DNA of 29,200 nt from positions 1 to 29,200 of IMG/VR virus record IMGVR_UViG_3300032156_000653. The stretch is one strand, 5' to 3'. The stretch is from a virus. Below, one piece after another: positions 3,465 through 27,598 of the stretch; the stretch's first letter is position 1; every line of letters starts with the position of its first letter. A program made the position numbers and the translations under genes. The notes beneath the pieces were generated by a model. It saw only the letters and a list, made by a program, of their open reading frames with translations, did no database searches and was not told the origin of the DNA.

Positions 3465-5851
3465 TACCTATGTATTACTCTCATATTATGTCCTTTGCGA
3501 ATCACTCTCATATTACCAAAATCCTGAACCGACTCACCTGATAATTTCTCATTTAACTTCCTCTGTTCCATGACTACCTGGTCGAGTCTTGAGTTAGGGC
3601 CGGAATTTTCCACCAGGACACTATTACTTATCTTATTCACCGGAGTTATAACAGGTAGTTCTCCTCTGTTGAATGATGATACCATATGATGAAATACCTT
3701 ACCATATTTCTCAGTGGCCGGTGCAGATAATACTCCCCATGCTTCGCCACGTTCCACCTCGACATGATTAAGAAATTTCTCCCCCCCCTGCGAGTGTTTA
3801 CGTCCAGTCACAATCCCTTTATCTGTTCCCGATCCTCCTTTAGCCAATCCAACTGTATCATCAACCTGTGACTTGACTGTTATAAATGCAGCAAGCAATA
3901 AGGCCACTAATGGAATAGCCAGGTATATGGGATAATCCTCAAATATCTTTGCTGCGGCAGTAATCAACGAACTGGCTTGAATTATTGTATCAATATCCTG
4001 TTTCTGTTTTGCTGCCTGACGTTCCTGTTCTATTGCTTTATCCCGTAGTTCCTTAAGTCGTGCTACTTCTTTTTGTTTATTAGCCACGTTAGCGGCATAA
4101 CCGGCCTTATACAGATCAACTTCAGTATCCAGTTCCCGTTGTGCTTCGGCTATCCTGTCATCAAGTAATTCCCTGTTACGTTGTGCATCTTCATATTTCT
4201 TTGTATATATCTCATCTAATGTATTAATGATGAAGTCTTTTGCTTCTATCAATGCTTCTTTCTGTTGCTGACCCTCCTCTGTGTTAGTATCAATACCAAA
4301 TAAGTCCCAGATAGAAAACTCCTCTTCCGATTTGGTCTTACCCAATTTCTTCTCAGCTTCTGATAATGTTGATTTCTGTAAACCTTCTAATTCGGGTAGT
4401 CCTTTTAATAATGCTTCGGATATTTTTTTCTTATCTGCATCACTTATAGTTATATTATTTGCTTCTTTTACTAATGACTTGTAATAGGCTTCCCATAAAT
4501 TCTTAGCCATAGTATCAAGCATCTGTTCTTCTTCCCATCCTAATCTGTTAAGTTCCTTGAGTTGTTCACGTATTAACCTTAATTTCTCTATACCATAATC
4601 CCTCAGTGCTTGTAATTTTTCAACTCCGGTTAATGATTCTAATTCTGATTTATCAAATTCTTCCCTGAGTTTCTGTGCTGACTCATCCCCTTTCTTTCGT
4701 TCTTCTGCTAACTTCCTTGCCGCATCTGCTTTCTCCTTTGCGATAACAGCATCAGTTCTTGAACTTACACGTAAATTAATAGCATTTTGTTTCGCTACCT
4801 CAATCTCTTTAAAATCAGTTACTATTTTGTCTTTTTGTATATCAAGTATATTATTGAGCCCTTTAGCAAGTTCTCCATAAGCAACGGCCTCACTACCTAA
4901 AGCATCTATTTTCAACATGATAGTTTTCATTTCAGGATCATCCGCAGGGTTTAAATAACCACCGCCTGTCTCTTGCAGTATATAATCTCTTTGTTTTAAT
5001 AATTCATTATATTTCTTGCCTATCTCAATCTGTCTTATCAACATTGGTTCCTGTTGTATATATCGCTCAATAGTTGTTCGATCCTGTTTAGACTTAAACT
5101 CTGCATTCCGCATATCATTATTTAATCTTATCTCTGCTAATTTCAATTCATCTGCCGCAGATCGCTTAACAATTTCTTCTGCTTCTTTTCCATATTCAAT
5201 TCTCTGTGCAGTAGTTTTATTCGCATCATTTTGCAATTCACGTAATTTTTTAAGTTCAGTAGCACTCCTCGATAAACTCAGTTGTAATGCTCGTTCGGAA
5301 TCCTCAATATTTTGATTGGTTTCTGCATATCGTTGTCCTTCTTTGACTGCATCTTGAATATTTTTAAAAAAATCCTTAAAGTCATTATTGGCTATTGCTC
5401 TGGCCATAGAAGCAAATCCCTCTTTCCATCCATTAAGAGTTGCTGCAAATTTATCACTCAACGAATCAGTAGATGCTATGACATCCCTAAATAATTTTAC
5501 AGCCGCTGTGACAGTCATAAATCCTAATGCCCAGTTTTTTGCAGCAGCCATCATTTTATTACCTTTTCCTGTCATCTGTTCTTCTGCTTTACCTGCATTC
5601 TCATAAGCCTCTAATCTTTTTTTCGATGCCTCAATATCTTTATTATACCAAGCAAGATTCTCTGCACTGGTTTTTCGTTTCCATTCTTGAAGTTTTTTCA
5701 ACACAGCTTCCTCTTTTTCAATGATACCAATAGCCTTACTTGATCCTGCCTTTACTTCATCATACATCTTCTGTGTCTGCGCTTGATTCTCCTTCATTGC
5801 TTGTATAAACTTCCTATTGTCTGCTACAATAGTTAATGTCACTTCAGCCAT
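3464..5851 (-). CDS. Tape measure protein
   Basis: A 795-residue protein whose length, position after the frameshifted tail chaperone pair and composition all fit a tail tape measure protein, which sets tail length and is threaded through the tail tube. Long Lys/Glu/Ala-rich coiled-coil stretches cover about residues 10-110, 180-250, 350-420 and 560-640. A strongly hydrophobic segment follows near residues 650-670 (YPIYLAIPLVALLLAAFITV), typical of tape measure proteins that contact the host membrane. The C-terminus has a glycine-rich patch (GLAKGGSGTDKGIVTGRKHSQGG), also common in this class. The start overlaps the stop of the chaperone extension by eight bases. At 795 residues it would predict a tail of roughly 120 nm by the usual length rule (estimate only). 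Confidence 0.9.
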   Translation of the reverse strand: MAEVTLTIVADNRKFIQAMKENQAQTQKMYDEVKAGSSKAIGIIEKEEAVLKKLQEWKRKTSAENLAWYNKDIEASKKRLEAYENAGKAEEQMTGKGNKMMAAAKNWALGFMTVTAAVKLFRDVIASTDSLSDKFAATLNGWKEGFASMARAIANNDFKDFFKNIQDAVKEGQRYAETNQNIEDSERALQLSLSRSATELKKLRELQNDANKTTAQRIEYGKEAEEIVKRSAADELKLAEIRLNNDMRNAEFKSKQDRTTIERYIQQEPMLIRQIEIGKKYNELLKQRDYILQETGGGYLNPADDPEMKTIMLKIDALGSEAVAYGELAKGLNNILDIQKDKIVTDFKEIEVAKQNAINLRVSSRTDAVIAKEKADAARKLAEERKKGDESAQKLREEFDKSELESLTGVEKLQALRDYGIEKLRLIREQLKELNRLGWEEEQMLDTMAKNLWEAYYKSLVKEANNITISDADKKKISEALLKGLPELEGLQKSTLSEAEKKLGKTKSEEEFSIWDLFGIDTNTEEGQQQKEALIEAKDFIINTLDEIYTKKYEDAQRNRELLDDRIAEAQRELDTEVDLYKAGYAANVANKQKEVARLKELRDKAIEQERQAAKQKQDIDTIIQASSLITAAAKIFEDYPIYLAIPLVALLLAAFITVKSQVDDTVGLAKGGSGTDKGIVTGRKHSQGGEKFLNHVEVERGEAWGVLSAPATEKYGKVFHHMVSSFNRGELPVITPVNKISNSVLVENSGPNSRLDQVVMEQRKLNEKLSGESVQDFGNMRVIRKGHNMRVIHR

Positions 5852-11210: not shown

Positions 11211-11403
11211 CTTTTTTTGGTTTTATTTTTTTTACTTCCAATGGAACTTCATGTTTCAGTGATGGAATTATGGGACGCATACGAAGATCCGTGACCGTAA
11301 AACGCCTCATGTCTACGGTTCCTTTATTTACCATCATAGCATAATCCTCATCAGAGATTATGGATATACGCCCTGTCTTTTTAGACTTTAGTTCTTTAGT
11401 CAT
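11200..11403 (-). CDS. Small hypothetical protein in capsid operon
   Basis: A 67-residue basic protein (MTKELKSKKTGRISIISDEDYAMMV...). The middle segment MVNKGTVDMRRFTVTDLRMRPIIPSL looks folded, while both ends are rich in Lys. I do not recognise it. It is coupled to both neighbours, with a four-base overlap on the upstream side and an 11-base overlap with the scaffold gene. It may be a small head or DNA-binding protein, but that is a guess from charge and location. Confidence 0.65.
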   Translation of the reverse strand: MTKELKSKKTGRISIISDEDYAMMVNKGTVDMRRFTVTDLRMRPIIPSLKHEVPLEVKKIKPKKDDG

Positions 11404-11630
11404 TTCTTTGCTTTTGACCTTACTGGTGCCTTGCGTGGTGCTTTTGCTTCCGTCTCCATGTTTGGTAATGGATCGACTTTTTTTAGATCAGGAACTTTGA
11501 GTAATTCCTTCGGGACATCTTTTAATATCCGCTTCTCCCGTGTAGCACCATGTTGTATCATGTAAGCAACCATATGCTCCATACAACGTATCTTGCGGTT
11601 ACCAACCATTAATTCTACTTTCTTTTGCAT
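11400..11630 (-). CDS. Small basic hypothetical protein, first gene of capsid operon
   Basis: A 76-residue protein starting MQKKVELMVGNRKIRCMEHMVAYMIQHGATREKR with a strongly basic Ala/Lys/Pro tail ending VRSKAKK. It is the first gene after the TIGR-like locus, its terminator and a new promoter. The basic disordered tail suggests nucleic acid or capsid contact. I do not recognise the family. The ATG at 11630 is preceded by an A/T-rich leader with the AACTAATTAGTT palindrome five bases upstream and has no Shine-Dalgarno sequence. Confidence 0.65.
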   Translation of the reverse strand: MQKKVELMVGNRKIRCMEHMVAYMIQHGATREKRILKDVPKELLKVPDLKKVDPLPNMETEAKAPRKAPVRSKAKK

Positions 11631-11697: not shown

Positions 11698-11725
11698 AAA
11701 AAAGCCCCTCCGGTATGGAGAGGCT
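11698..11725 (-). terminator. Rho-independent terminator ending the guide array
   Basis: On the minus strand the stem AGCCTCTCC / GGAGGGGCT (one G-U pair, five-base loop) is followed by six T. The outer end of the stem overlaps the last degenerate repeat copy (11722-11730), so transcription of the array would end exactly at its boundary. This also supports minus-strand transcription of the array. Confidence 0.8.
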
Positions 11726-11928
11726 CACTTTTGGTCTGTGATTATATTTACGATAATGATTCACTTATTCTTTTTGGGTAACTTCAACAAAGTGATTCAC
11801 TTTTAAATTTTGGGTAACTTTTGTACAATGATTCACTTATAGTTAGTGGGTAACTTATATTAAATGATTCACTTATAAAACCTGGGTAACTTCCATGCTT
11901 TGATTCACTTTCAACCTTTGAGTATATA
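11722..11928 (-). repeat. TIGR-like guide RNA array 1 (36-bp period), 3' of tasH-like gene
   Basis: On the coding strand, blocks AAGTGAATC (A) and AAGTTACCC (B) alternate, each followed by a 9-nt variable segment, giving an exact 36-bp period. Block A is perfect at 11758, 11794, 11830, 11866 and 11902, with a diverged copy at 11722. Block B is perfect at 11776, 11812, 11848 and 11884, with diverged copies at 11740 and 11920. Variable segments in transcription order: AAAGGTTGA, AAAGCATGG, AGGTTTTAT, ATTTAATAT, ACTAACTAT, ATTGTACAA, AAAATTTAA, ACTTTGTTG, AAAAAGAAT, ATTATCGTA, ACAGACCAA. All begin with A. The 36-nt unit with two 9-nt spacers is the published layout of TIGR arrays, which are processed to 36-nt tigRNAs. 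The array begins 12 bases after the gene stop and ends on a terminator. Confidence 0.92.
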
Positions 11929-11939
11929 ATTCATTGTGA

Positions 11940-12881
11940 TTAATAAACCCATCCACGTTCTTTCGGCTTTACTATTCCGGTATGTCCCAATTTTGCCTCA
12001 ACATACAAATCCGGCGTTGGTAGTCCTTCTAATGTCCGTGCAACATACCAGTAATCAGCCAAAAAATGCTTTATCATCTTTCGCATTGCTGCTCCATGCC
12101 TGTGACATGGTTTTGTCTCACTCCACATACATTCAATCAATTTACCCTGAGTATTTCGTGACTTAGTAATCTTCATACTACTTTCCAATTTATTCTTTTC
12201 AGCATCATAGACATCCCGGTAAACTGCTCGTGTCTTAATCATTGAATCAGCCATAGTATAAAGAACAGTTCTTAACGTCTTATTCCCGCCACCGGATTCT
12301 CCTTTGGTATATCTCTCGTGACTTGGTTTATCAAATCCGACATATTTCCATAGTGACGAGGCATATTCAGCTTTTGTGATGTCAATATATACCAACATAT
12401 ATGCTATTGTCATTGCACCTAATCCTTTAATATTAAGTGCCACTTTTACAATAGGCATTTTTAATCCTTTGATATACTTATGAATTCTCCTGTCTTGTTT
12501 TCCAAGTTGTTTACTTGTCTCTTTGACTTGGGATTTTAACCATATCTCAGTAATTGAGTCCATCTGATCTGTACCTCTTTTTGCAGCAAGTAATCGGTTA
12601 TTAACGGAATTCATTAATTTCCTGATCTGTTCCCGACCATCAATTAGTACTTTCAATTCTGTGAGTTCAGGAGTTCTTTCCCGATAAACGGAGTGTCGTT
12701 TCATATGCATCACCGGATCAAGAACACGAGTATTTTCATCCGTGTATATGCCTCCTTTTGCTTTCGGTTCAATACGGTCTGTATCGAATAACCTGGTTTC
12801 CTCGGCTAAATGTCTTGCCGAAACAGAACATAAACCATTCTGCTCTTTTCTTAATCTTGTTTTTAATGCTGTTTTTGTCAT
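11940..12881 (-). CDS. tasH: TasH-like TIGR-associated protein (HNH + Nop/Transposase_20-like)
   Basis: A 313-residue protein. Residues about 8-66 form an HNH-like domain (LRKEQNGLCSVSARHL, FDTDRIEPKAKGGIYTDENTRVL, MHMKRH). Residues about 70-145 are a charged helical linker. Residues about 146-300 contain an IKGLGAMTIAYMLVYI helix-hairpin-helix-like stretch, LWKYVGFD, a GGGNKTLRTVLYTMADS segment and a basic C-terminal helix (GAAMRKMIKHFLADYW), resembling the IS110 Transposase_20 and Nop domains. TIGR-Tas proteins carry a Nop domain, sometimes fused to HNH (TasH) or RuvC (TasR), and bind 36-nt tigRNAs to recognise DNA. The adjacent 36-bp arrays make this assignment strong. Odd point: the usual Asp-His of HNH is Asp35-Arg36 here. 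IS110 catalytic DEDD RuvC domain is absent, so it is unlikely to be a simple transposase. Confidence 0.92.
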   Translation of the reverse strand: MTKTALKTRLRKEQNGLCSVSARHLAEETRLFDTDRIEPKAKGGIYTDENTRVLDPVMHMKRHSVYRERTPELTELKVLIDGREQIRKLMNSVNNRLLAAKRGTDQMDSITEIWLKSQVKETSKQLGKQDRRIHKYIKGLKMPIVKVALNIKGLGAMTIAYMLVYIDITKAEYASSLWKYVGFDKPSHERYTKGESGGGNKTLRTVLYTMADSMIKTRAVYRDVYDAEKNKLESSMKITKSRNTQGKLIECMWSETKPCHRHGAAMRKMIKHFLADYWYVARTLEGLPTPDLYVEAKLGHTGIVKPKERGWVY

Positions 12882-12915
12882 CTTGGGGTTTTATTAAATT
12901 AATCACTTCAAATTT

Positions 12916-13014
12916 GATTCACTTATTTATAATGGGTAACTTTTATACAATGATTCACTTACAATTAATGGGTGACTTCTGGAGAATAATTCACTTCGAT
13001 CCATTGAGTTATTG
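12916..13014 (-). repeat. TIGR-like guide RNA array 2 (short), 5' of tasH-like gene
   Basis: The same 36-bp architecture as array 1. Block A is perfect at 12916 and 12952 and has one change at 12988 (AAGTGAATT). Block B is perfect at 12934, has one change at 12970 (AAGTCACCC), and is diverged at 13006 (CAATAACTC). Variable segments in transcription order: AATGGATCG, ATTCTCCAG, ATTAATTGT, ATTGTATAA, ATTATAAAT. The first block B copy of both arrays ends ACTC, so the two arrays share their 5' boundary type. Another partial block (AAGTGATTA, 12900-12908) lies off register just before the gene. The array is in the leader of the tasH-like gene and is probably co-transcribed with it. Confidence 0.88.
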
Positions 13015-13067
13015 TCTAGTAATAATTTTGCCTTTTCGGGTGTGATTAAAATAATTTCTGTTTTCAT
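12927..13067 (-). CDS. Short ORF running into array 2, possible gene remnant
   Basis: A 46-codon frame starts MKTEIILITPEKAKLLLDNN and then reads through the array blocks in frame (SES...SYP) to a TAA. The first 20 residues resemble the N-terminus of the small ParB/DGRHR-like protein at 6731-6976 (MKPVLKLFTPEIAEELL). This looks like the 5' end of such a gene truncated by, or co-opted as leader of, the array. Whether it is translated is unknown. It is too short and its second half too dependent on array sequence to be confident of a functional protein. Confidence 0.4.
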   Translation of the reverse strand: MKTEIILITPEKAKLLLDNNSMDRSELFSRSHPLIVSESLYKSYPL

Positions 13068-13086
13068 CTTAATTAATATTAATTTA

Positions 13087-13160
13087 AAAGCCTCCCAGTT
13101 CTGCGAGAAACAAGGAGGCTTTATGGTTATAACCGTCTATTTTTTTGTGTCCTCGCAGAA
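13087..13160 (-). promoter_or_regulatory. Structured leader or terminator upstream of the TIGR-like locus
   Basis: Stem 1 pairs 13087-13095 (AAAGCCTCC) with 13114-13122 (GGAGGCTTT) around an 18-base loop and is followed on the minus strand by TTTT, so it can act as a terminator for the head gene. The loop contains TTCTGCGAG (13099-13107), an exact inverted match to CTCGCAGAA at 13152-13160. The two pairings overlap, which could give alternative folds or a pseudoknot, as in attenuators. A 10-bp palindrome GGTTATAACC lies between (13125-13134). Confidence 0.6.
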
Positions 13161-13169
13161 ACATCAATA

Positions 13170-13177
13170 CAAATATA
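13170..13177 (-). promoter_or_regulatory. Candidate promoter for the TIGR-like locus
   Basis: The minus strand reads TATATTTG, a full match to the TAnnTTTG -7 element of Bacteroidota, in an A/T-rich 3' flank of the head gene. The -33 region is only weakly matching. A transcript from here would contain the structured leader, array 2, the tasH-like gene and array 1 up to the terminator at 11698. Confidence 0.4.
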
Positions 13178-13202: not shown

Positions 13203-14153
13203 TTATTTTTCTTTTAATTCCGGTCTCATCTCAAAAGCCAAAATATCTCCAATCCATCCCAGTGCGTGACGACAGTTATAACCACCCCTGTCAATGCCGG
13301 GATCATAACCAGGATAACCTAAATAACTGGGAACTGAGTAAATGTCTTTTGCCTTAACATTATATCCAGGAGGGTATTCGCCTTGTGCGGGCGTCCATGT
13401 GTCCCAAGTCTTCATCTCCTCAATACTCCAAACCTTATTGTTATGTGCCGCACAGAAATCCCTCGAATCATCAATCAGACCTCCCTGGTAGATGAAATAC
13501 GTGAACCCAAACTCATTACCGAGTGTCTGGTTATATGCCGCATCGTATTGCTGATACAAGTCATAAGCATATCTCTGAAATTGTCTCTCTAGACCACCCT
13601 TATATTCTTCTGATCCGGTGATCATATTACCCAGGTCAGTAACATAATCTCTCATGTTCATCTGCGATGTAACTGCTTTTGATGTCATATTCTTTAAATC
13701 CAATCCAATGGTATTCGAGTTAAAGAATGACTCCAGATAACCACCCCTGACCAGTTTACCACCATTCAGACCGATCCTGAGGTTCATCATCTTATTCGTT
13801 GTGGCAATGATCTTTTCAAACTTCTCAGGCAGTCCGCCAACAGCAATGAAATAATCCGCAGTCAGTTCCGCTATCTTCGATGTCCCTGCCACCATTTGAC
13901 CCAAAACTATCTCACCTGCCTCTGACTGAAATCCCTTATATACTTTATCTAATGAAGAAATTAAACGGTAATTATTCGGCGTGTCCTGTATGATTCCACC
14001 TTTAATATCCAGTTCCGGGGTGATCTCTTTGATGACATCGCTCAGTAACTTACTCTGAAGTTTCACAACGGTATTTTCCAATTTTGTACGTTGCGAATCA
14101 ATATAGTTCTGTTTTGCCTCAAGTATGGCTGAGAGTCTTCTGGGTAACTTCAT
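13203..14153 (-). CDS. MuF-like head morphogenesis (minor capsid) protein
   Basis: A 316-residue protein. The C-terminal third has the features of the phage Mu gpF-like head morphogenesis domain: FIYQGGLIDDSRDFCAAHNN near residues 219-238, then PPGYNV and DRGGYNCRHALGW near 285-300, a Cys/His arrangement typical of that domain. The N-terminal part is helical (AKQNYIDSQRTKLENTVVKLQSKL). In many tailed phages this protein is encoded next to the portal and is a minor head component. Here it is separated from the portal by a fibre-like gene and glycosyltransferases. The start overlaps the previous gene by 35 bases. Confidence 0.85.
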   Translation of the reverse strand: MKLPRRLSAILEAKQNYIDSQRTKLENTVVKLQSKLLSDVIKEITPELDIKGGIIQDTPNNYRLISSLDKVYKGFQSEAGEIVLGQMVAGTSKIAELTADYFIAVGGLPEKFEKIIATTNKMMNLRIGLNGGKLVRGGYLESFFNSNTIGLDLKNMTSKAVTSQMNMRDYVTDLGNMITGSEEYKGGLERQFQRYAYDLYQQYDAAYNQTLGNEFGFTYFIYQGGLIDDSRDFCAAHNNKVWSIEEMKTWDTWTPAQGEYPPGYNVKAKDIYSVPSYLGYPGYDPGIDRGGYNCRHALGWIGDILAFEMRPELKEK

Positions 14154-14385
14154 CGTATTTCAAATCAATATATTCACTTCTCATCTTGGAGAATGTCACA
14201 ACAGCCGATTCAAGATTGTAATTCTCTATACCTACGAACCGGAAATAACTGCAAAGGGATTGCTCTACGGTACACGTGGGGACAATCTTCAACTGCCCTT
14301 CGATATAGAAAAACATCCCTATGTCTTCATATTTCCGCTTGTATATTCTCGGAATAATCTTTGTATGTTCCTTCTCTTTTGGCAT
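14119..14385 (-). CDS. Small hypothetical protein
   Basis: An 88-residue soluble protein (MPKEKEHTKIIPRIYKRKYEDIGMFFYIEG...). The frame overlaps the upstream glycosyltransferase by 59 bases; a later ATG at 14316 would avoid that but would remove a stretch, IIPRIYKRKYEDIGMFFY, that looks like part of the fold. The start is therefore uncertain. C-terminal FSKMRSEYIDLKYDE is probably helical. I do not recognise the family. It is linked to the head morphogenesis gene that follows. Confidence 0.65.
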   Translation of the reverse strand: MPKEKEHTKIIPRIYKRKYEDIGMFFYIEGQLKIVPTCTVEQSLCSYFRFVGIENYNLESAVVTFSKMRSEYIDLKYDEVTQKTLSHT

Positions 14386-15040
14386 AATACTGTTTTCTTT
14401 GGTTAAATGTACTCAACTCACTGCGCTTATATTGTCTCTGTATCTGTGCGTTCTGAACAGATAATGTACTACTGGTTATATGGTCAACTTGTATATTGCA
14501 GAATAATCCATGTCTTATACCTGCCGACTGCAACTGACAGGCATAAAGATCATCGGAATACCAGAAGGCAACCGAATCATCTAACTTACCGATCTCCTGA
14601 ATACAGAAAGCATCAACAAATATGCACCAGCCGGTAAGATGATAACCAATTCGATAACCTTCATATACAAAATCACCTCTTTGGAAGTCTTTTTGTCTGG
14701 CATCCTGGCTCAGAACCGAAGCACTATGATAACCGTTTGACTTCATCAAATCCCCTATCTGTGACCACCCTGGATGAAAGATAATATCATTATTTGCAAG
14801 TATATGAATATCTCCTTTGGCATATTTTAAACCAAGATTCAAGGCACGGTTATAATTGAACGCACCATTATACTCAATGATCTTATCAACATCATACTTG
14901 TATGGCTGTCCTGTCTCAACAATAATGATATTCAGTTCTGCCCCGTCCCTTCGTGCCGAGTCAATACAGTTCTGAGTAACCTGGATAAGACTACCTTTGC
15001 TTTGTGATACTATGATAAGGTCATAAGACATAATTCTCAC
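14327..15040 (-). CDS. Family 2-like glycosyltransferase
   Basis: A 237-residue protein with a GT-A fold outline: YDLIIVSQSKGSLIQVTQNCIDSARRDG at the N-terminus, IIVETGQPY near residue 40, FNYNRALNLGLKYAKGDIHILANNDIIFHPGW near 61-93, where NND stands in for the DXD metal site. C-terminal IGYHLTGWCIFVDAFCIQEIGKLDDSVAFWYSDDLYAC fits the acceptor-side motif of GT2 enzymes. The ATG at 15031 is an alternative start. It lies in a run of three glycosyltransferases within the structural cluster. Donor and acceptor are unknown. Confidence 0.85.
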   Translation of the reverse strand: MRIMSYDLIIVSQSKGSLIQVTQNCIDSARRDGAELNIIIVETGQPYKYDVDKIIEYNGAFNYNRALNLGLKYAKGDIHILANNDIIFHPGWSQIGDLMKSNGYHSASVLSQDARQKDFQRGDFVYEGYRIGYHLTGWCIFVDAFCIQEIGKLDDSVAFWYSDDLYACQLQSAGIRHGLFCNIQVDHITSSTLSVQNAQIQRQYKRSELSTFNQRKQYYAKREGTYKDYSENIQAEI

Positions 15041-15632
15041 ATGATTGATTTAATCCAATATGGCGTATCTCCAGATCAGTCAGATAGACAGGCTTATAAC
15101 TCAACCTCCGGTAATATTTCCCGATCATATAGTCGCCATACTTCAGATGCCGGTAGTCATCGACCATCCTGCGGCAAATATAATACGGGATCAACTGAAA
15201 TGCCCCACCCGTGTGCGTGACGTAATTAACGTTGAACCCATTAAGATTCTTCTTACCTAGTGATGCCGGAGCAAATGCCGGGTCTAGAGCCAGGTCGACA
15301 GGCGAACAGACATAACCATGACCATTCAACTGATAAAACTCCAACATCCTGTTTATTATATCCGGCGTTACTGTCTCAATATCGTTATCCAGTTTGAGGA
15401 TAAAGTCATACTCTTGTAATTTAATAACTGCCTCCCTGAAAGCATAAGCAATACCGTAGTTCTTTTCAAGTAAGATATGATTATGTACTTTCAGGAATCC
15501 TTTTGTGCCGTCAGTACTGCCATTGTCAATAAATAAATGATAGTCCACTGATGTCTTACTCTGAAAACTTTCAACTGTCCTTTTTGTTAATTCCAATCTG
15601 TTGTACGTTATTGTTACTGCAGCTACTGTCAT
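15021..15632 (-). CDS. Family 2 glycosyltransferase
   Basis: A 203-residue GT-A protein: VAAVTITYNRLELTKRTVESF at the start, YHLFIDNGSTDGTKGFL (residues 31-47) as the nucleotide-binding strand, and DFILKLDNDIETVTPDII with DND (82-84) as the DXD metal site. This is a clear GT2 signature. The C-terminal region (NGFNVNYVTHTGGAFQLIPYYICRRM) is consistent with acceptor binding. No membrane segment, so a cytoplasmic enzyme that probably modifies a soluble acceptor such as a virion protein, or a host glycan precursor. Its stop overlaps the start of the next transferase. Confidence 0.9.
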   Translation of the reverse strand: MTVAAVTITYNRLELTKRTVESFQSKTSVDYHLFIDNGSTDGTKGFLKVHNHILLEKNYGIAYAFREAVIKLQEYDFILKLDNDIETVTPDIINRMLEFYQLNGHGYVCSPVDLALDPAFAPASLGKKNLNGFNVNYVTHTGGAFQLIPYYICRRMVDDYRHLKYGDYMIGKYYRRLSYKPVYLTDLEIRHIGLNQSCENYVL

Positions 15633-15653
15633 GTTTTTATTTTGGTAAAACTA

Positions 15654-15854
15654 TTATTCCAAACTTACGTTTAACCATTCGTCTGATTGCTCTTTTACTT
15701 TTGCAATTAACTGTTCTCTGAATTCTCTGCCATCAAATGAGTTATGAACAATAAGTATTTCACCTTCTTCAACTTGAATAACTGGTTTGCAATGACAATC
15801 AGGTGTCTCTGAATGTAATTCTAAATCATTCACTGGAATTATATGGTAACTCAT
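15654..15854 (-). CDS. Small hypothetical protein between glycosyltransferases
   Basis: A 66-residue acidic protein (MSYHIIPVNDLELHSETPDCHCKPVIQVEEGEILIVHNSFDGREF...). The C-H-C trio in DCHCKP and the HN.FDGRE motif are the only distinctive marks; the first could bind a metal. The ATG overlaps the previous glycosyltransferase stop by four bases. I do not recognise the family. Confidence 0.65.
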   Translation of the reverse strand: MSYHIIPVNDLELHSETPDCHCKPVIQVEEGEILIVHNSFDGREFREQLIAKVKEQSDEWLNVSLE

Positions 15855-16468
15855 AAGTCATATCCCTTTCCTATTGTTGATCTCGGTATGTGACAGACAT
15901 AATACTCACCTCCGGGTATCTTTGCAAAGTTCTTATAATATTTCAGGTTACTAATAAAGTAATAGTCATGCGCATAACCATTGTATGTCCACCTTACAGA
16001 CAAGTTCTTATGACATATATTCGATGTGCCATGCTGACCTACTTTGTTAATATCACAAGGGTTCTGATACCATTCGTCTGTTGTCTCAGAATATCTTATG
16101 TCATCGAACCATACCCAGTCATATCCATTTAGACCCTCATTGATCGTTTTTAAGTGATTTTGACCATAGACATCATCTATATCCAGGTAAGTAATATACT
16201 CGCCTCTGGACGCTTCCAATCCCGTATTACGTGGTGTTCCTGACCACATCTTTGACTTATCAATGAGAATACATTTCAGTCGTGCATCATCAATGGTCTC
16301 AACTATATCCACTGTCTTCTGGCAACCATCAGCAATGACAATTAGTTCCCAGTTATGGAATGACTGACAACGTACAGAGTCAATGGCACGTAATATTTTA
16401 CGGTCACGTTCTTTTGCGGCCGTGCGATAATCACCAAGATATGATGCCATAATAACTGAGAATCTCAT
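15851..16468 (-). CDS. Family 2 glycosyltransferase
   Basis: A 205-residue GT2 protein: RFSVIMASYLGDY at the N-terminus, ILRAIDSVRCQSFHNWELIVIADGCQ (residues 25-50) and NTGLEASRGEYITYLDIDDVYGQNHL, with LDIDD (95-99) containing the DXD metal site. This is a textbook GT-A arrangement. The C-terminal half has several Trp/Tyr residues that could contact an acceptor. Four-base ATGA overlaps link it to the genes on both sides. Substrates are unknown. Confidence 0.9.
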   Translation of the reverse strand: MRFSVIMASYLGDYRTAAKERDRKILRAIDSVRCQSFHNWELIVIADGCQKTVDIVETIDDARLKCILIDKSKMWSGTPRNTGLEASRGEYITYLDIDDVYGQNHLKTINEGLNGYDWVWFDDIRYSETTDEWYQNPCDINKVGQHGTSNICHKNLSVRWTYNGYAHDYYFISNLKYYKNFAKIPGGEYYVCHIPRSTIGKGYDL

Positions 16469-17019
16469 CTTTTCTTCTTATATATCTTGTGATGATTGAT
16501 AGTATTCAGGTATTTACTTCTGCCCCTGCCCATTAGTCCTCCGGCGACAACATACTCAAATTGAGAGAAGTCATAACCCTTAAAACTGCCTTGTAATGGT
16601 TCACATGATGCCATCTTGCGATACTCAAGTCCTTCCATTATCTTTGCCCTGTACCACTGTGCGGGACTCTCAATAGTAACTCCCAAGATACAGTTACCAG
16701 GAAAGTTAAAATCATAATACTTGGCAGGATTCTTTGTCATAAATAAGAAATCATGAAGAGGTAAATCATAACATACCTTAATCACTTTCTCAATCCATTC
16801 TCTTGGAACCCATGACCCCATAATATCAGCATAATGATTGACAAATATTTGACATGGCTCAACATCATAAGGTTCTCTCAGTCGCTCCTCACAAAAGATC
16901 GGTTCAAAACTCCTGCCCTGCCGTTCTATCTGTTTACGTGCATAACAGTATTTGCATCCATGAAGACAACCCTCGATGGGATCCCATGCGTAATCATAAA
17001 ATGTATGTGCTTTAAGCAT
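16465..17019 (-). CDS. Radical-SAM-like phage protein (DUF5131 / Gp37-Gp68 type)
   Basis: A 184-residue protein beginning MLKAHTFYDYAWDPIEGCLHGCKYCYARKQ. Cys18, Cys22 and Cys25 form CX3CX2C, the iron-sulfur motif of radical SAM enzymes, followed by YA. Further marks, FEPIFCEERLREPY, FMTKNPAKY, GVTIESPAQWYR and YVVAGGLMGRGRSK, match phage proteins annotated as Gp37/Gp68 or DUF5131. The full proteins are usually longer, so this may be a short form. The reaction is not established for the family. It is embedded between the fibre-like gene and glycosyltransferases, so a modification of virion protein or glycan is possible but unproven. Confidence 0.8.
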   Translation of the reverse strand: MLKAHTFYDYAWDPIEGCLHGCKYCYARKQIERQGRSFEPIFCEERLREPYDVEPCQIFVNHYADIMGSWVPREWIEKVIKVCYDLPLHDFLFMTKNPAKYYDFNFPGNCILGVTIESPAQWYRAKIMEGLEYRKMASCEPLQGSFKGYDFSQFEYVVAGGLMGRGRSKYLNTINHHKIYKKKR

Positions 17020-22311: not shown

Positions 22312-22908
22312 TCAATTATGGATGAATAAACACTTATTTATTTTTATGGCTTTTAACCTTCTTTGCAGACAATTACGCAGACATTCCTCTGCATAAGTGC
22401 CATCAGCGGAGAAATGATCATGGTTGAATCCCGTCTTTTTTGCTATGTCAGCCTTGACAATAAACGCTCCCATATCAATAGCATTCTCCCGCAACTCGGA
22501 ATAATTAATATCATAATTAGCATGGGAATGAATAGTATTACAGTATATTATCCCTGCCCTGCCGTTAATCTCTTTCATCATAAACTCAATGAACCGGGGG
22601 ACATAATAGTTGTCATCATTGGTCATGAGTATGAAGTCATCTGTCCGGCACTCAATCACCTGGAGCATCATCTTGCGATTTGGATGACCATACTTCTGGT
22701 ATCTCTCCACTGACTGATAAAAATGCACCCTGTCGTCTTTCCGTTTTCCACTGATAAATGGCTCAATAATATCAAGAATATCCTCCGGTGCTTTACCATC
22801 ATAGACAATATGAAGGATCCAGCGACCATCAGTCTGAAGAATAAAACAATTTATCAGGCTTTGCAGTTGTACCGAACGTTCATATGCCACTGCGATTATA
22901 TGTATCAT
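22312..22908 (-). CDS. Family 2-like glycosyltransferase
   Basis: A 198-residue protein: IHIIAVAYERSVQLQSLINCFILQTDGRWILHIVYDGKAPED at the N-terminus, HPNRKMMLQVIECRTDDFILMTNDDNYYVPRFIEFM with NDD (residues 97-99) as the metal site, and FSADGTYAEECLRNCLQ towards the C-terminus, matching the GT2 catalytic-side region. It is coupled by ATGA to the preceding transferase. Substrates are unknown, though the operon context favours an activated heptose as donor. Confidence 0.85.
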   Translation of the reverse strand: MIHIIAVAYERSVQLQSLINCFILQTDGRWILHIVYDGKAPEDILDIIEPFISGKRKDDRVHFYQSVERYQKYGHPNRKMMLQVIECRTDDFILMTNDDNYYVPRFIEFMMKEINGRAGIIYCNTIHSHANYDINYSELRENAIDMGAFIVKADIAKKTGFNHDHFSADGTYAEECLRNCLQRRLKAIKINKCLFIHN

Positions 22909-23606
22909 ACCACTTTTATTAGTGCAGTCATCTCATTATCAATATACTCTATCACTTTCTCCGGCGGGAAGTCAACATGATAACCCCAACCCATTTGTTT
23001 ATTCAGTTCACTCCTGCGCTTGGAAGCACGGGCATTGCGTTCAATGACATATTCCTTTGACAGATGCCTCATATGAAGGGTCATAATCTCAGATGTAGTA
23101 TTTATCTTGACGTTTCCCTTTGGTTTGGCACTATGACAACCAATGGCATAATTGATCTCCTGTATCTCTGACGGACGGAATATATTCATCTTGCCACCGC
23201 CCTCACGCCCCCCTGTTACTTCTTCATAAATCTGCCCTTCTGTTGTCGGAAAGACATCTGCAAACATATTCCAGAGCCGAGGGAAAAATACCGTTGCATC
23301 AGTCTCTTCGAGTATCCTGACAATATTCGGATGGTAAATAAACTCATCAGCATCGACCACCATCACCCAGTCAGCCGTGGATTCTTTCCAACAGGAATTT
23401 TTAATGTCCATAAACCACTGATCGTTTATTTCATCCGGCACATCATACGTCCATACCTCCGCCCCTAATGCGCTTGCAATCTCAACTGTACGATCTGTTG
23501 AATTGCTCTCCAATAATATCACATCGGAGAACTGAGAATAATGGCGCATGAAATATGTTATCAGACGCTCCTCATTATTACATAAACAGAATGTTTCTAT
23601 TTTCAT
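22905..23606 (-). CDS. Glycosyltransferase (GT2_4 type)
   Basis: A 233-residue protein starting MKIETFCLCNNEERLITYFMRHYSQFSDVILLESNSTDRT, the pattern of Glyco_tranf_2_4 proteins. ADWVMVVDADEFIY carries DAD at residues 85-87 as the metal site. C-terminal IMTLHMRHLSKEYVIERNARAS is a typical His-rich helical end in this group. It lies two bases after the GT32-like gene. Acceptor and donor are unknown. Confidence 0.85.
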   Translation of the reverse strand: MKIETFCLCNNEERLITYFMRHYSQFSDVILLESNSTDRTVEIASALGAEVWTYDVPDEINDQWFMDIKNSCWKESTADWVMVVDADEFIYHPNIVRILEETDATVFFPRLWNMFADVFPTTEGQIYEEVTGGREGGGKMNIFRPSEIQEINYAIGCHSAKPKGNVKINTTSEIMTLHMRHLSKEYVIERNARASKRRSELNKQMGWGYHVDFPPEKVIEYIDNEMTALIKVV

Positions 23607-23608
23607 AA

Positions 23609-24211
23609 TTATCTATTTGCCCATGTTCCTGCATTATGATGGTTTGTATAAGATTCAGGGTGATGCTCACGGTAAAAATAATTAGAATTGAAGATCGTTA
23701 TGCCGTTCAATCTCTGTGTCTCATCCTTCCTCTCCCATCCGTATCTCTCTGCGATTGTTGTGTACATCTCCGGCCCTGTCATTATCTCTATACCACACGG
23801 ACCATTATTGTTGAAGTCATAGTTATCCAGGAAATCCATACAATCTTTAAAAAATGGATTACCTTTCTCTGACCCGCTGACGGCACCGTTGATCCTGTTC
23901 CAGTTCTCTGCTCCCATAAAGGCTTTCTCATTCAACAGATCATCAAAACTCTTTTCCGCCTCTACATCAATATCAAAATATATCCCGCCTTCCGAATATA
24001 ACTTTTCACAGAAACTATAATGAACTGTCAGAACATATTTTTTCAATTCCAGTGCCTTATTCACGAAGGGACTCCTGCCAATGTTTTCCAGAGATATTTG
24101 TCTTATCTCGTAATCGGGCATTAACCTCTTCCACCCCTCCCTGTATATATCAAACCGCTCAGGTTTTGGTTCAGGACTTATCCATGAATAATGTATTATC
24201 TTTGGTATCAT
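23609..24211 (-). CDS. GT32-like glycosyltransferase (DXD sugar-binding type)
   Basis: A 200-residue protein starting MIPKIIHYSWISPEPKPERF, the classic start of DXD sugar-binding region transferases (OCH1/capsular type). YVLTVHYSFCEKLYSEGGIYFDIDVEAEKSF includes DID at residues 80-82. NRINGAVSGSEKGNPFFKDCM and HHPESYTNHHNAGTW complete the family outline. The ATG overlaps the methyltransferase stop by four bases. Likely to transfer a sugar from a nucleotide donor to a growing glycan; specific sugar not predictable. Confidence 0.88.
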   Translation of the reverse strand: MIPKIIHYSWISPEPKPERFDIYREGWKRLMPDYEIRQISLENIGRSPFVNKALELKKYVLTVHYSFCEKLYSEGGIYFDIDVEAEKSFDDLLNEKAFMGAENWNRINGAVSGSEKGNPFFKDCMDFLDNYDFNNNGPCGIEIMTGPEMYTTIAERYGWERKDETQRLNGITIFNSNYFYREHHPESYTNHHNAGTWANR

Positions 24212-24720
24212 TTTGTTGCTTTTATATAAATATGTGTATCTTCCGGCCTGTTGAACCTGGTTCTCTCCACCCTGGCTCTCATGTCCGATAACCCATTCTC
24301 ATAATACCTGAATTCGGATAACTCGCCATATATCGTCTCTTCTGTCCACGCTGACTTATGTTCATCGCCTGGCCAGCGTTGCCATCCGTAAAAGGTTGCC
24401 AGTATGTGATCTTTGCTGAATGGTGTCGGCAATCCCCGAAGTGTGTCGTATAAATATTTGCTCCATACCGTAAGGTCGGGAACATCGAAAAGAAATATCC
24501 CTCCATATCCTAATAGTTTATGAACGTGTTTTATTGTCTTTCGTACATCTTCAAATCTCAGATGTTCAATGACACCAATAGTCAGAACCTCGGATAATGA
24601 CTCTATCGGCAGATCAATCTCCCACGGATTACATAAAAAATCAAGTTTCGACATCCTTATAATATCCTGATGCAGATAACCTTCTGTCGGTCTTTCGCCA
24701 CAACCAAGTTCCAGCTTCAT
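24208..24720 (-). CDS. SAM-dependent methyltransferase
   Basis: A 170-residue protein of the class I (Methyltransf_11-like) fold. MKLELGCGERPTEGYLHQDI is motif I, with the Gly loop at residues 5-8 and Asp19 for the SAM ribose. VLTIGVIEHLRFEDVRKTIKHVHKLLGYGGIFLFDVPD provides the post-I/II region. It is short, as is usual for sugar or small-molecule methyltransferases in glycan loci. Four-base overlaps link it to both neighbours. A role in methylating the sugar or glycan end is an inference from context. Confidence 0.85.
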   Translation of the reverse strand: MKLELGCGERPTEGYLHQDIIRMSKLDFLCNPWEIDLPIESLSEVLTIGVIEHLRFEDVRKTIKHVHKLLGYGGIFLFDVPDLTVWSKYLYDTLRGLPTPFSKDHILATFYGWQRWPGDEHKSAWTEETIYGELSEFRYYENGLSDMRARVERTRFNRPEDTHIYIKATK

Positions 24721-25121
24721 AGTTCCCTGTAATTAGTTGTCGATCGTGCTGGTAGTCCCGGCTCCTGTGTCCTCTTCAAAACAATATATTTGATACCCAG
24801 GTCTTCACAGAGATTTTCTTTCTCCTCAGAATGTTGATCTTCATTCACTATCAGAATATCCGGTGCAGTATGTTCAATATCTTCCATGTAATCCAAATAA
24901 CCCTCCCCGGAATTGATCCATGCCTCACTGACATAACGGATCGACTTTACCATGAATAACCTCTCCTCTTCCCCACAGATAGGAATACGGTCTTTGTATT
25001 TTATTACTGAATAATCAGACCCTATACCAACAAATAACTCTCCGTATTCCGATGCACGTTTCAGAAAAGTTATATGCCCGCTATGAAGCATATCGAATGT
25101 CCCTGATACAAATACTCTCAT
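24717..25121 (-). CDS. HxGH nucleotidyltransferase (HldE-C / TagD-like)
   Basis: A 134-residue protein of the cytidylyltransferase-like superfamily: MRVFVSGTFDMLHSGHITFLKRA contains HSGH (residues 13-16), the nucleotide-binding HxGH motif, and ARSTTNY near the C-terminus resembles the STT motif. Members couple NTP with a phosphorylated substrate, for example ADP-heptose synthesis by HldE or CDP-glycerol by TagD. With a heptose kinase and isomerase in the same operon, heptose-1-phosphate is the most likely substrate. The nucleotide used cannot be told by eye. Confidence 0.85.
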   Translation of the reverse strand: MRVFVSGTFDMLHSGHITFLKRASEYGELFVGIGSDYSVIKYKDRIPICGEEERLFMVKSIRYVSEAWINSGEGYLDYMEDIEHTAPDILIVNEDQHSEEKENLCEDLGIKYIVLKRTQEPGLPARSTTNYREL

Positions 25122-25795
25122 AATTTTAAACCACTTTCTTTTGCATCATTGTAAAACATACGAACCGTATCAAGAGAATATTCCGTTAAATCCTTCCCTT
25201 GCAGTGACATTTTCTTTATCAAATCAGGTGTGCAGGTTATAACATGACATCCTATCTCCTGTGCCTGATAAACATTAAATACTTCCCTGGGGGATGCCCA
25301 TATGAGTTCAATCTTAGTGCCATTAATCAGTTTTAAGGCACTTTTCATTATTGGCAGAGGGTTTATACCCGTATCTGCTATGCGCCCCGCAAAGATGCTT
25401 ATAAATCCTTTTTTCAGCGACGGCAGTATCCTCCGCACCTGCTTAATAGTAGTTATTGCCGTCACATTCAGATTCACATGATCCAGTCGCCGGATGACAT
25501 CCTCGGTTGATTTGCCCTCAGTATTCGTTATTGGAATCTTAACATAGACATTCTCTCCCCAAGAGGCAATCTCCAATGCCTGACGGTACATCTCATAATT
25601 ATCATCGGCAATGACCTCAAAAGATATTGGTTTATCCCTGATCACCGAGAGTATATCTAAAGCAAACTCTTTGTAATCCGTCACACCTGCTTTGCGAAGT
25701 AAGGATGGATTAGTTGTAAATCCTTCAACAAACGGATTCTTATTCAGTTCCAGGATTGAAGCCCTATCGGCTCCGTCAGCAAATATTTTTACCAT
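25118..25795 (-). CDS. Transaldolase-like (TalC/FSA type) enzyme
   Basis: A 225-residue TIM-barrel protein of the small transaldolase / fructose-6-phosphate aldolase group: MVKIFADGADRASILELNKNP...GFTTNPSLLRKAG, then YVKIPITNTEGK with the Schiff-base Lys86, and NVTAITTIKQ and ISIFAGRIADTG for phosphate binding. Such enzymes interconvert sugar phosphates. In this operon the simplest role is to supply sedoheptulose 7-phosphate, the substrate of the isomerase encoded just upstream. Bacterial heptose loci do not usually contain this gene, which makes it notable. It overlaps the isomerase gene by seven bases. Confidence 0.88.
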   Translation of the reverse strand: MVKIFADGADRASILELNKNPFVEGFTTNPSLLRKAGVTDYKEFALDILSVIRDKPISFEVIADDNYEMYRQALEIASWGENVYVKIPITNTEGKSTEDVIRRLDHVNLNVTAITTIKQVRRILPSLKKGFISIFAGRIADTGINPLPIMKSALKLINGTKIELIWASPREVFNVYQAQEIGCHVITCTPDLIKKMSLQGKDLTEYSLDTVRMFYNDAKESGLKL

Positions 25796-26352
25796 ATCGT
25801 TTTATTTATTTGTAACTTCGGATGAGAAACAATCAAATGCCAGATAACACTCTGTAACCCTTCAGTGATCGGGGTGATATAATTATCAGTTTTTATATGA
25901 ATAGTCACATCAGCTTCATGTTTGACCACCCCGCCATCTTTACCAACTATTCCCATGACTATTGCTTTCTTTTCTTTAGCAAACCTGAGAGCCTTCACAA
26001 GATTCTGGCTTACCGTCTCTGTACCTCCACCGACTGAGATAACCAATACTCCGTCTTTAGAATTAATCCCTGAAGTCTCTAACCATTTTAATGTTGTGGT
26101 GTCCCAACCTTCATCATTTGTACGGGCAGTCAATTCTGACAGGTTCTCAAAACACAGGGCATCAAAATTGCACAGTTTGCGGAAATCACATACAGCATGG
26201 GAAGCATGACCGGCTCCGCCACCGGAACCAATAATAAACAGCCTGCCCTTTCCCCGTATATCCAATAACAACGAAACAGTTAATTCAATATCCATAACAT
26301 CAATCTGCGATATTGATTCAGTTACTTTGTCTAAAAAGTCTTTTGTGAACAT
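25789..26352 (-). CDS. gmhA: Sedoheptulose 7-phosphate isomerase (GmhA-like)
   Basis: A 187-residue SIS-domain protein. RLFIIGSGGGAGHASHAVCDFRK (about 38-59) is the sugar-phosphate loop, ENLSELTARTNDEGW resembles the GmhA loop, and VLVISVGGGTETVSQNLV is the second SIS loop. PITEGLQSVIWHLI supplies a Glu/Gln/His set typical of GmhA. The enzyme converts sedoheptulose 7-phosphate to D-glycero-D-manno-heptose 7-phosphate, the first committed step of nucleotide-heptose synthesis. It shares one base with the kinase stop (TAATG). Confidence 0.87.
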   Translation of the reverse strand: MFTKDFLDKVTESISQIDVMDIELTVSLLLDIRGKGRLFIIGSGGGAGHASHAVCDFRKLCNFDALCFENLSELTARTNDEGWDTTTLKWLETSGINSKDGVLVISVGGGTETVSQNLVKALRFAKEKKAIVMGIVGKDGGVVKHEADVTIHIKTDNYITPITEGLQSVIWHLIVSHPKLQINKTIW

Positions 26353-27311
26353 TAATAATTTGCTATTACTTTAACGCCTTCAAACTCGAACCGGAAATCC
26401 ATATATCTTAATCCTTGATCCTCCATTGCTGATTTTAGTGCCTTTCTCCTTCCCTCTTTGGCACATAATAGTAAAAACCCACCACCACCAGCTCCCATTA
26501 TCTTGCCCCCTAATGCACCGTTCAGTAGTGCTGTCTCATACCATTCATTAATGTTACCATTTGTCATCTTTGATATTGAACGCTTGACCGTCCAGTGATC
26601 ATGTAGTAAATTACCAAACCTTGTAATATTACCTTCATGCAATTTCAATTCAATATTCACCCCAATATTTTTTATCTTGTGCATATCTTCCGTTGGCATA
26701 GGATCAGAGAGTACCTCTGTGGCGTTCCTGGTGATACCTGTATAGAACATCAAAAGCCTGTTTTCCAATTCAAATATTGTCTCTTGTTTAAGTCTCATAG
26801 GATTGACAAATACCTGTCCCGTGGGTAAAATATTTAACTGATTCACGCCTCCTAACGCCACGGCATACTGATCCTGCTTCCCGATAGGTTTACCTACCAT
26901 ATCAATCTCTACTTTGCAGGCTTCTTCCGCCAACTCAATAGGAGATATAAACTTCCGTTCAATAGTATTTAATCCTGCCAATAATCCTACTGTAAAGGCA
27001 GAACTGGATCCCATGCCTGTCCCGGCTTCAATATCTGCCATACTGCCTATCTCAATAGGACGATTGATATTATGTAATTTAAGTGATTCCCGGATAATAT
27101 TGTGTTCAATCTCCGAGGCATCACCAACAATTTCAGAATATCTGTAATACAGCTTTATCTTATCACTCGTTGCTGGCTCATTGATTGATATATACATAAA
27201 TTTGTTTATTGAAGCAGTTATTAATCTTCCCCCAAACTCCTTGCAATATGCCGGGAGATCAGTACCGCCACCTCCAAGTGGTAATCGGAATGGGACTCTG
27301 ACGATTATCAT
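26352..27311 (-). CDS. hddA: D-glycero-D-manno-heptose 7-phosphate kinase-like (HddA-like) GHMP kinase
   Basis: A 319-residue GHMP kinase. MIIVRVPFRLPLGGGGTDLPAY at the N-terminus is the signature of HddA-type enzymes. EAGTGMGSSSAFTVGL (about 95-110) is the ATP-binding motif, and GGKIMGAGGGGFLLL (about 264-278) is the C-terminal glycine-rich motif. HddA phosphorylates the C1 position of heptose 7-phosphate in the GDP-heptose pathway. Related fucose or other sugar kinases are possible, but the adjacent GmhA-like gene favours heptose. Four-base overlap with the preceding gene. Confidence 0.87.
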   Translation of the reverse strand: MIIVRVPFRLPLGGGGTDLPAYCKEFGGRLITASINKFMYISINEPATSDKIKLYYRYSEIVGDASEIEHNIIRESLKLHNINRPIEIGSMADIEAGTGMGSSSAFTVGLLAGLNTIERKFISPIELAEEACKVEIDMVGKPIGKQDQYAVALGGVNQLNILPTGQVFVNPMRLKQETIFELENRLLMFYTGITRNATEVLSDPMPTEDMHKIKNIGVNIELKLHEGNITRFGNLLHDHWTVKRSISKMTNGNINEWYETALLNGALGGKIMGAGGGGFLLLCAKEGRRKALKSAMEDQGLRYMDFRFEFEGVKVIANY

Positions 27312-27598
27312 AACTCTTCAATTCTTAATGCCCGGTCATCAATAATAAAATCAAAGATCGGTTTATTGCCTATCAATAACTCATCATATCTACAACCCCA
27401 TCGTTTTAGTTGGTTCTCAGTTAATTCCCTCCAGTCCTTTCCGCTGGTCGTCCCCCTGGCTGTCCAATAGATTATCCTATGCCCTTTATCAAATAACTCA
27501 TTGATCTTTGTTATACCCTCAGGATAAGGCTTGGCTAATACATAATCATTGTCCGGAGTAATGGCTATTGTACCATCTATATCAACGTAGTAAATCAT
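27308..27598 (-). CDS. Small HAD-family phosphatase
   Basis: A 96-residue protein starting MIYYVDIDGTIAITPDND, with the DxDGT nucleophile motif at residues 6-10, YWTARGTTSGKDW for motif II, and FIIDDRALRIEEL for the metal-binding acidic pair near the end. A longer frame to 27658 exists, but the ATG at 27598 makes an exact ATGA overlap with the epimerase stop and begins at the HAD motif. It lacks the cap domain and is shorter than GmhB (about 180 residues). In this operon it could remove the C7 phosphate of heptose 1,7-bisphosphate, an inference that fills the missing step. Confidence 0.82.
   Translation of the reverse strand: MIYYVDIDGTIAITPDNDYVLAKPYPEGITKINELFDKGHRIIYWTARGTTSGKDWRELTENQLKRWGCRYDELLIGNKPIFDFIIDDRALRIEEL

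What the first reader, a model, noticed from the sequence alone, without database searches (positions are those of the whole stretch)
11698..13177. TIGR-Tas (TasH-type) RNA-guided system embedded in a phage head gene cluster
A gene for an HNH-like plus Nop/Transposase_20-like protein is flanked by arrays with an exact 36-bp period. Each period contains two distinct 9-bp constant blocks (AAGTGAATC and AAGTTACCC on the coding strand) and two 9-nt variable segments. This matches the reported TIGR-Tas layout: 36-nt tigRNAs with two spacers, Tas proteins with a Nop domain that may carry HNH or RuvC, found in phages. The protein would otherwise be taken for an IS110 transposase or an HNH endonuclease.
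Basis: partly seen in the sequence, partly recalled or inferred. Interest (0 to 1): 0.95.

Follow-up and report, generated by a model that had tools for sequence, protein, structure and literature searches.

The report
Phage TIGR-TasH RNA-guided nuclease cassette
This phage carries a compact RNA-guided DNA-cutting system (TIGR-TasH, a kind first described in 2025); its guides have no known target yet, but in two related phages the guides match the very spot where sister phages lack the cassette, a first hint that these systems may spread by cutting their cassette-free relatives.

Summary
On the minus strand, 12881-11940 encodes a 313-aa TasH. It passes NCBI's TIGR-Tas model (119 bits, cut-off 100) and matches solved TasH of Salicola phage CGphi29 (52% identity; structural Z 30.4). 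Two TIGR arrays flank it (12996-12915 and 11910-11721), and a terminator abuts the second. The unit is 10-nt edge, 8-nt spacer A, 10-nt loop, 8-nt spacer B, not 9+9. It is a new member of a known kind.

What is new came from relatives. Of 29 TasH loci, 28 have the 36-nt array. An unbiased search found two guides of phage L007 matching, 16/16 in the published geometry, sites in relative G001; one lies exactly where L007's cassette joins the shared sequence, and is also exact in cassette-free relative G030. A prospective test then found a guide of G001 matching (15/16) G030 at G001's own cassette site. No random guide pair of 20,000 reached 15/16 there. Own genomes are not targeted. A third pair (G034/L117) is negative, and the window's guides could not be tested well because its relatives are only about 70% identical. 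RNA-guided homing, or rivalry with sibling phages, is a supported but unproven role.

The parts
11940..12881 (-). TasH gene, 313 aa: N-terminal HNH (about 1-65), coiled coil (71-139), Nop / Transposase_20 domain (about 143-310)
12915..12996 (-). Upstream TIGR array: 2 units plus terminal edge repeat. Guides (A/B): ttctccag/ttaattgt, ttgtataa/ttataaat
   Evidence: identical in L002
11721..11910 (-). Downstream TIGR array: 5 units plus truncated terminal edge. Guides (A/B): aagcatgg/ggttttat, tttaatat/ctaactat, ttgtacaa/aaatttaa, ctttgttg/aaaagaat, ttatcgta/cagaccaa (last loop degenerate)
11702..11726 (-). Intrinsic terminator, 10-pair stem plus T run, fused to the truncated last edge repeat
   Evidence: this fusion is how the discovery paper describes TIGR array ends
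13087..13122 (-). Hairpin followed by a short T run between the Mu-F-like head gene and the upstream array; likely separates the cassette from the upstream operon
   Evidence: (I14)
13203..14153 (-). Left-hand neighbour: Mu-F-like head morphogenesis gene, 316 aa (no family match; named by motif reading and gene order)
   Evidence: no hit; syntenic in relatives
11400..11630 (-). Right-hand neighbour: small gene of unknown function in the same head cluster, adjoining the cassette-free site in relatives

Best explanation
A TIGR-TasH cassette. The two arrays are transcribed leftwards (minus strand) and cut within the edge repeats into 36-nt tigRNAs, each with two 8-nt spacers between box-C/box-D-like repeats. 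A TasH dimer binds one tigRNA through its Nop domains; spacer A pairs with one strand of a target and spacer B with the other (target strand 5'-A·rc(B)-3'), and the two HNH domains nick the two strands, giving a staggered double-strand break. Shown here: protein family and fold, array anatomy, terminator, conservation of the HNH residues, presence/absence between related phages at one site. Inferred from published work on CGphi29 TasH: processing, pairing and cleavage. Role, inferred from relatives and not shown for this phage (I give it about 45%; the confidence below is for identity and cutting mechanism only): the guides cut related phages that lack the cassette, at or near the insertion site, so that repair copies the cassette in, that is, RNA-guided homing.
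For: Identity: NF052498 119 bits vs cut-off 100; phmmer to TasH structures 7e-104, family profile 7.6e-152; model pLDDT 91.5 with Z 30.4, rmsd 2.9 over 308 residues to 9w04 TasH-tigRNA-dsDNA. HNH-region residues D33, R36, N50 invariant and H59, H63 at 90% or more across 21 TasH proteins. 28 of 29 TasH loci show a 36-nt repeat period with the same 10/8/10/8 layout, including CGphi29, whose 16-nt total spacer length is published. Array end fused to a terminator. Role: two L007 guides exact in G001, gap 0, expected geometry, one of them at the junction of L007's cassette; that one exact in cassette-free G030 as well, and a G001 guide 15/16 in G030 at G001's cassette site; random guide pairs 0 of 20,000 at 15/16 or better in each region; no excess of own-genome targets.
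Against: No expression or cleavage data. No target found for any of the window's seven guides: matches at relatives' empty sites are not above shuffles. G034's 21 guides do not match cassette-free L117 although L117 is 82-92% identical. The downstream end of L007's cassette is not seen because its contig ends inside tasH. No cassette transfer has been observed.
Confidence: 0.95

Rival explanations
1. Plain inter-phage warfare or superinfection exclusion: the guides cut competing phages anywhere in their genomes and the cassette does not move by that cut.
For: L007 guides match a relative, and the second exact site lies about 190 bp from the first, which suits destroying a rival as well as homing. 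A window guide (aagcatgg/ggttttat) matches 15/16, with a 1-nt gap, the capsid-gene region of relative L109 and 14/16 in three others.
Against: In both pairs with clear matches the target lies at the cassette's own insertion site, which warfare does not predict. The capsid match is within chance for the amount of DNA searched (my estimate about 0.1 expected). The published test found no phage protection by TasR in E. coli.
Confidence: 0.35
2. Control or maintenance role within the phage's own genome or against the host (gene regulation, host genome targeting).
For: Both L007 targets cover the ribosome-binding site and start codon of small phage genes, and the G001 target looks like a promoter.
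Against: Own contigs hold no more targets than mispaired guides do. TasH is a nuclease with its HNH residues kept, so self-targeting would break the genome. Host genomes were not tested.
Confidence: 0.1
3. An IS110-family transposase or lone HNH endonuclease with unrelated tandem repeats.
For: PF02371 and PHROG 'transposase' hits.
Against: No DEDD/RuvC transposase domain; the N-terminal part folds as HNH; the NF033542 IS110 model is far below its cut-off (30 vs 140) while the TIGR-Tas model passes; arrays accompany 28 of 29 relatives.
Confidence: 0.01

Closest known systems
SpTIGR-TasH of Salicola phage CGphi29 (Faure et al. 2025, PMC12045711; structures 9w04, 21kl and others)
   Same: HNH-Nop architecture, 52% identity over 96% of the protein, 36-nt unit with 16 nt of spacer, array ending in a terminator, located near phage packaging and head genes
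   Different: Different repeat sequences (AAGTGAATCA/AAGTTACCCA here; AAGCGAGCCA/AAGACAACCA there); arrays on both sides of the gene here, downstream only in CGphi29; fewer units (7); likely Bacteroidota host
TIGR-TasR (structure 9mty)
   Same: Nop domain and dual-spacer array; model Z 19.7
   Different: RuvC instead of HNH, 9-nt spacers, different box motifs
IS110/IS621 bridge-RNA recombinases
   Same: Nop-type C-terminal domain (Z 15.6)
   Different: DEDD catalytic domain, one bridge RNA per element, recombination rather than cutting
Free-standing phage HNH homing endonucleases (T4 type)
   Same: Proposed behaviour only: cut the allele without the cassette near the insertion site
   Different: Site recognition would be by RNA, so the element could be re-aimed by changing spacers; homing itself has not been shown

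Membership tests
TIGR-Tas / TasH | Tas protein with Nop domain related to IS110 C-terminal domain and box C/D Nop proteins | tested here: met
   NF052498 above cut-off; Z 30.4 to TasH, 19.7 to TasR, 15.6 to IS621
TIGR-Tas / TasH | N-terminal HNH nuclease with conserved catalytic-type residues | tested here: met
   HNH folds of Endo VII and Cas9 match residues 1-65; D33, R36, N50 invariant, H59 and H63 at 90% or more
TIGR-Tas / TasH | Array of two alternating 8-12-nt repeats with short spacers, 36-nt unit | tested here: met
   shuffles never reach the observed periodicity
TIGR-Tas / TasH | Array ends in truncated edge repeat followed by rho-independent terminator | tested here: met
   AAGTGA at 11730-11725 runs into stem 11726-11702
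TIGR-Tas / TasH | Transcript processed to 36-nt tigRNAs bound by the protein | not testable with these tools
   Needs small-RNA sequencing of a pull-down
TIGR-Tas / TasH | tigRNA-guided cutting with spacers A and B on opposite strands | not testable with these tools
   Published for CGphi29 TasH; sequence matches in relatives fit that geometry
Homing element | Related genomes exist with and without the element at the same site | tested here: met
   Window vs L103-L111 and G031-G033: interval of about 410-810 bp without cassette; TasH absent from 13 of 14 relatives searched
Homing element | The nuclease's target lies in the element-free allele at the insertion site and is lost in the element-bearing allele | tested here: inconclusive
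   Met for L007 vs G001/G030 and G001 vs G030; not met for G034 vs L117; window itself not above shuffles with diverged relatives
Homing element | Transfer of the element to element-free genomes after cutting | not testable with these tools
   Needs a two-genome or two-plasmid assay
IS110 transposase | Catalytic DEDD/RuvC domain and NF033542 model | tested here: not met
   NF033542 30 bits vs cut-off 140; N-terminal part is HNH

The most novel reading that the evidence does not exclude
TIGR-TasH cassettes are RNA-guided homing elements of phages: at least some of their tigRNAs are aimed at the cassette-free allele of their own insertion locus in sibling phages, so the cassette spreads by cut-and-copy and can move to a new locus by changing 8-nt spacers. 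This would answer the question, left open in the discovery paper, of what natural tigRNAs target and what the systems are for.
Probability: 0.45. Interest if true: 0.87.

Novelty: new member of a known kind. Interest (0 to 1): 0.62.

Why it matters
The system is a member of a described family, so its existence here is not surprising. What matters is that the TasH relatives found through it give candidate natural targets for tigRNAs. The discovery paper says targets are hard to identify and lists the origin of spacers and the biological role as open questions. Targets at the insertion site of cassette-free siblings point to a specific, testable function. They also supply three defined phage alleles (L007, G001, G030) for testing it.

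Tried and rejected
(1) 9+9 reading of the unit: rejected by column information over 277 units. (2) IS110 transposase: rejected. (3) Self-targeting: no excess over mispaired guides in 28 contigs. (4) Window guide aagcatgg/ggttttat against the capsid gene of L109: kept only as a lead, because it needs a 1-nt gap, has one mismatch, and is chance level for the DNA searched. (5) Window guides against empty sites of relatives about 70% identical: not above shuffles. (6) G034 guides against L117: no match. (7) The unit shared by L007 and G001 (tagcctac/gtagtcgg) scanned exactly through IMG/VR: six hits, none in related phages. (8) TasH in bacterial genomes: the pattern scan found none, but such a scan can miss diverged copies. 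(9) DNA-level relatives among cultured phages: none for the window, L016, L021, L022 or L032. (11) Mycobacterium phage 'transposases' at about 27% identity: no 36-nt array found by the tandem-repeat search in the one inspected; not followed.

Full report
OBSERVATION. The window is a whole IMG/VR virus record of 29,200 bases. On its minus strand lies a 313-aa ORF (12881-11940) with repeat arrays on either side. Periodicity at 36 nt is far beyond shuffles in both arrays. From 277 units taken from 28 TasH loci, the repeat unit resolves into a 10-nt edge repeat, 8-nt spacer A, 10-nt loop repeat and 8-nt spacer B. The published CGphi29 TasH array likewise has 16 nt of spacer per unit. The window has 2 units upstream and 5 downstream. 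The downstream array ends in a truncated edge repeat that runs straight into a terminator hairpin, as described for TIGR arrays. No Rfam family and no tRNA occur in the window.

IDENTITY. The protein passes NCBI's TIGR_Tas_endo equivalog model, 119 bits against a cut-off of 100, and fails the IS110 model. It matches the solved TasH of Salicola phage CGphi29 at E=7e-104 (52.5% identity over 96%). A predicted model (mean pLDDT 91.5) superposes on TasH-tigRNA-dsDNA with Z 30.4 over 308 residues, on TasR with 19.7 and on IS621 with 15.6, and its first 65 residues on HNH domains of Endo VII and Cas9. D33, R36 and N50 of the HNH region are invariant and H59, H63 nearly so in 21 TasH proteins. Membership in TIGR-Tas, type TasH, is thus tested and met on every feature that sequence can test.

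RELATIVES. One pattern scan of IMG/VR gave 30 loci. Of 29 distinct loci examined (CGphi29 included), 28 have 36 as the best repeat period in at least one flank; the exception, L034, is a partial and most distant copy. The bacterial-genome scan found none. The cassette occurs in different genome modules: in the head cluster in the window, G001 and G034; beside an early-gene segment in L007; near helicase or DNA polymerase genes in other phages (annotations by my reading). At the window's site, relatives carry only 410-810 bp between the Mu-F-like gene and the following conserved gene, so the cassette comes and goes there. L002, the same phage from another sample, is 99.95% identical and differs by one base in a spacer. 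A Bacteroidetes metagenome bin carries a relative of the capsid-like gene, so a Bacteroidota host is likely but not shown.

TARGETS. The published geometry (8-nt 3' overhangs, cut 5' to the base pairing with guide base 5) implies a target strand 5'-A·rc(B)-3'. That deduction is mine. I searched all 277 guides against 1.14 Mb of TasH phage contigs in this and three control geometries. Totals at 15/16 are about the same in all geometries, i.e. background. Two of the three exact hits in the expected geometry, however, are two guides of one small contig (L007), both with no gap, 190 bp apart, in one phage: G001, a relative. Aligning L007 with G001 shows that the homology flanking L007's cassette ends at one of these targets: G001 reads TAATCACTAAAGCAGAAGAGAGATGAGTAGG, L007 reads TAATCACTAAAACAGAAGAG-GATTAGTAAAT and then cassette-specific sequence. 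L007's own copy is therefore altered in both half-sites. G030, a relative without TasH, has the same 16-mer exactly, although G001 and G030 differ on both sides of it.

PROSPECTIVE TEST. If guides are aimed at the cassette-free allele, G001's guides should match G030 at G001's cassette site. One does, 15/16 with no gap (TTATAAATTTGACAAA, mismatch near a spacer edge), about 30 bp from where G001-G030 homology resumes. G030 has four predicted tRNA genes where G001 has the cassette, and G001 has no tRNA gene. In the three local regions no random guide pair out of 20,000 reached 15/16. The 'mispaired' L007 hits in that table are not independent, because the two guides share spacer A. Against this, the 21 guides of G034 do not match L117, which is 82-92% identical and cassette-free. 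The seven window guides show nothing above shuffles in relatives about 70% identical, where a 16-bp target is not expected to survive. No phage targets itself above background.

READING. The most likely mechanism is RNA-guided double-strand cutting by a TasH dimer; it is published for the CGphi29 protein and inferred here. The most likely role is homing or rivalry against cassette-free sibling phages. The position of targets at insertion sites favours homing in the two positive pairs; the negative pair and the lack of any transfer evidence keep this near even odds. For the window itself the role is by analogy only.

LIMITS. Regions for the null were chosen after the first hit for L007, and as a stated prediction for G001. 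Papers under other licences and preprints were not searchable, so later work on TIGR targets may exist.

Noticed in passing
window 22312-28515: Run of sugar and surface-carbohydrate genes in a phage: GHMP kinase, SIS isomerase-like, transaldolase, epimerase, nucleotidyltransferase-like, glycosyltransferases and a methyltransferase-like gene (for the first four).
   Followed up: partly
window 14327-16468: Three glycosyltransferase-like genes inside the head gene cluster, between the portal gene and the TasH cassette; glycosyltransferase-like genes also precede the cassette in relative G001.
   Followed up: partly
window 16465-17019: DUF5131 protein with a CxxxCxxC motif (PF07505, E=3e-21), in the structural region of a phage.
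   Followed up: no
window 28947-29125: About 30 copies of a 6-nt repeat (TAGCCG) at the end of the record, readable as AT or GYGN type repeats in overlapping frames.
   Followed up: no
window 12926-13064 (minus strand): A 46-codon ORF starts upstream of the upstream array and reads through it in frame (36 nt = 12 codons); L007 has a similar 67-aa ORF running into its array (3672-3875).
   Followed up: no
L007 3773-4052 and L009 7611-7944: The two related arrays share one unit (tagcctac/gtagtcgg) among otherwise different units, so arrays turn over unit by unit; no target found for it.
   Followed up: partly
L027 8890-9475, L028 9042-9267, L020 3730-3937: Duplicated units or spacers within one array, in L020 with one base changed in the copy, suggesting that arrays grow by copying units.
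   Followed up: no
L124 1066-1396 (G030): Four predicted tRNA genes sit where sister phage G001 has its TasH cassette.
   Followed up: partly
L147 4800-4935: Microcystis phage Mvi-JY20 has a distant Nop-type protein followed by a 36/72-nt repeat array, annotated only as hypothetical.
   Followed up: no
L146 2839-3546: Mycobacterium phage BPBiebs31 gp74, annotated transposase, is one of 71 mycobacteriophage hits to TasH residues 118-308 at about 27% identity; no tandem array detected beside it.
   Followed up: partly
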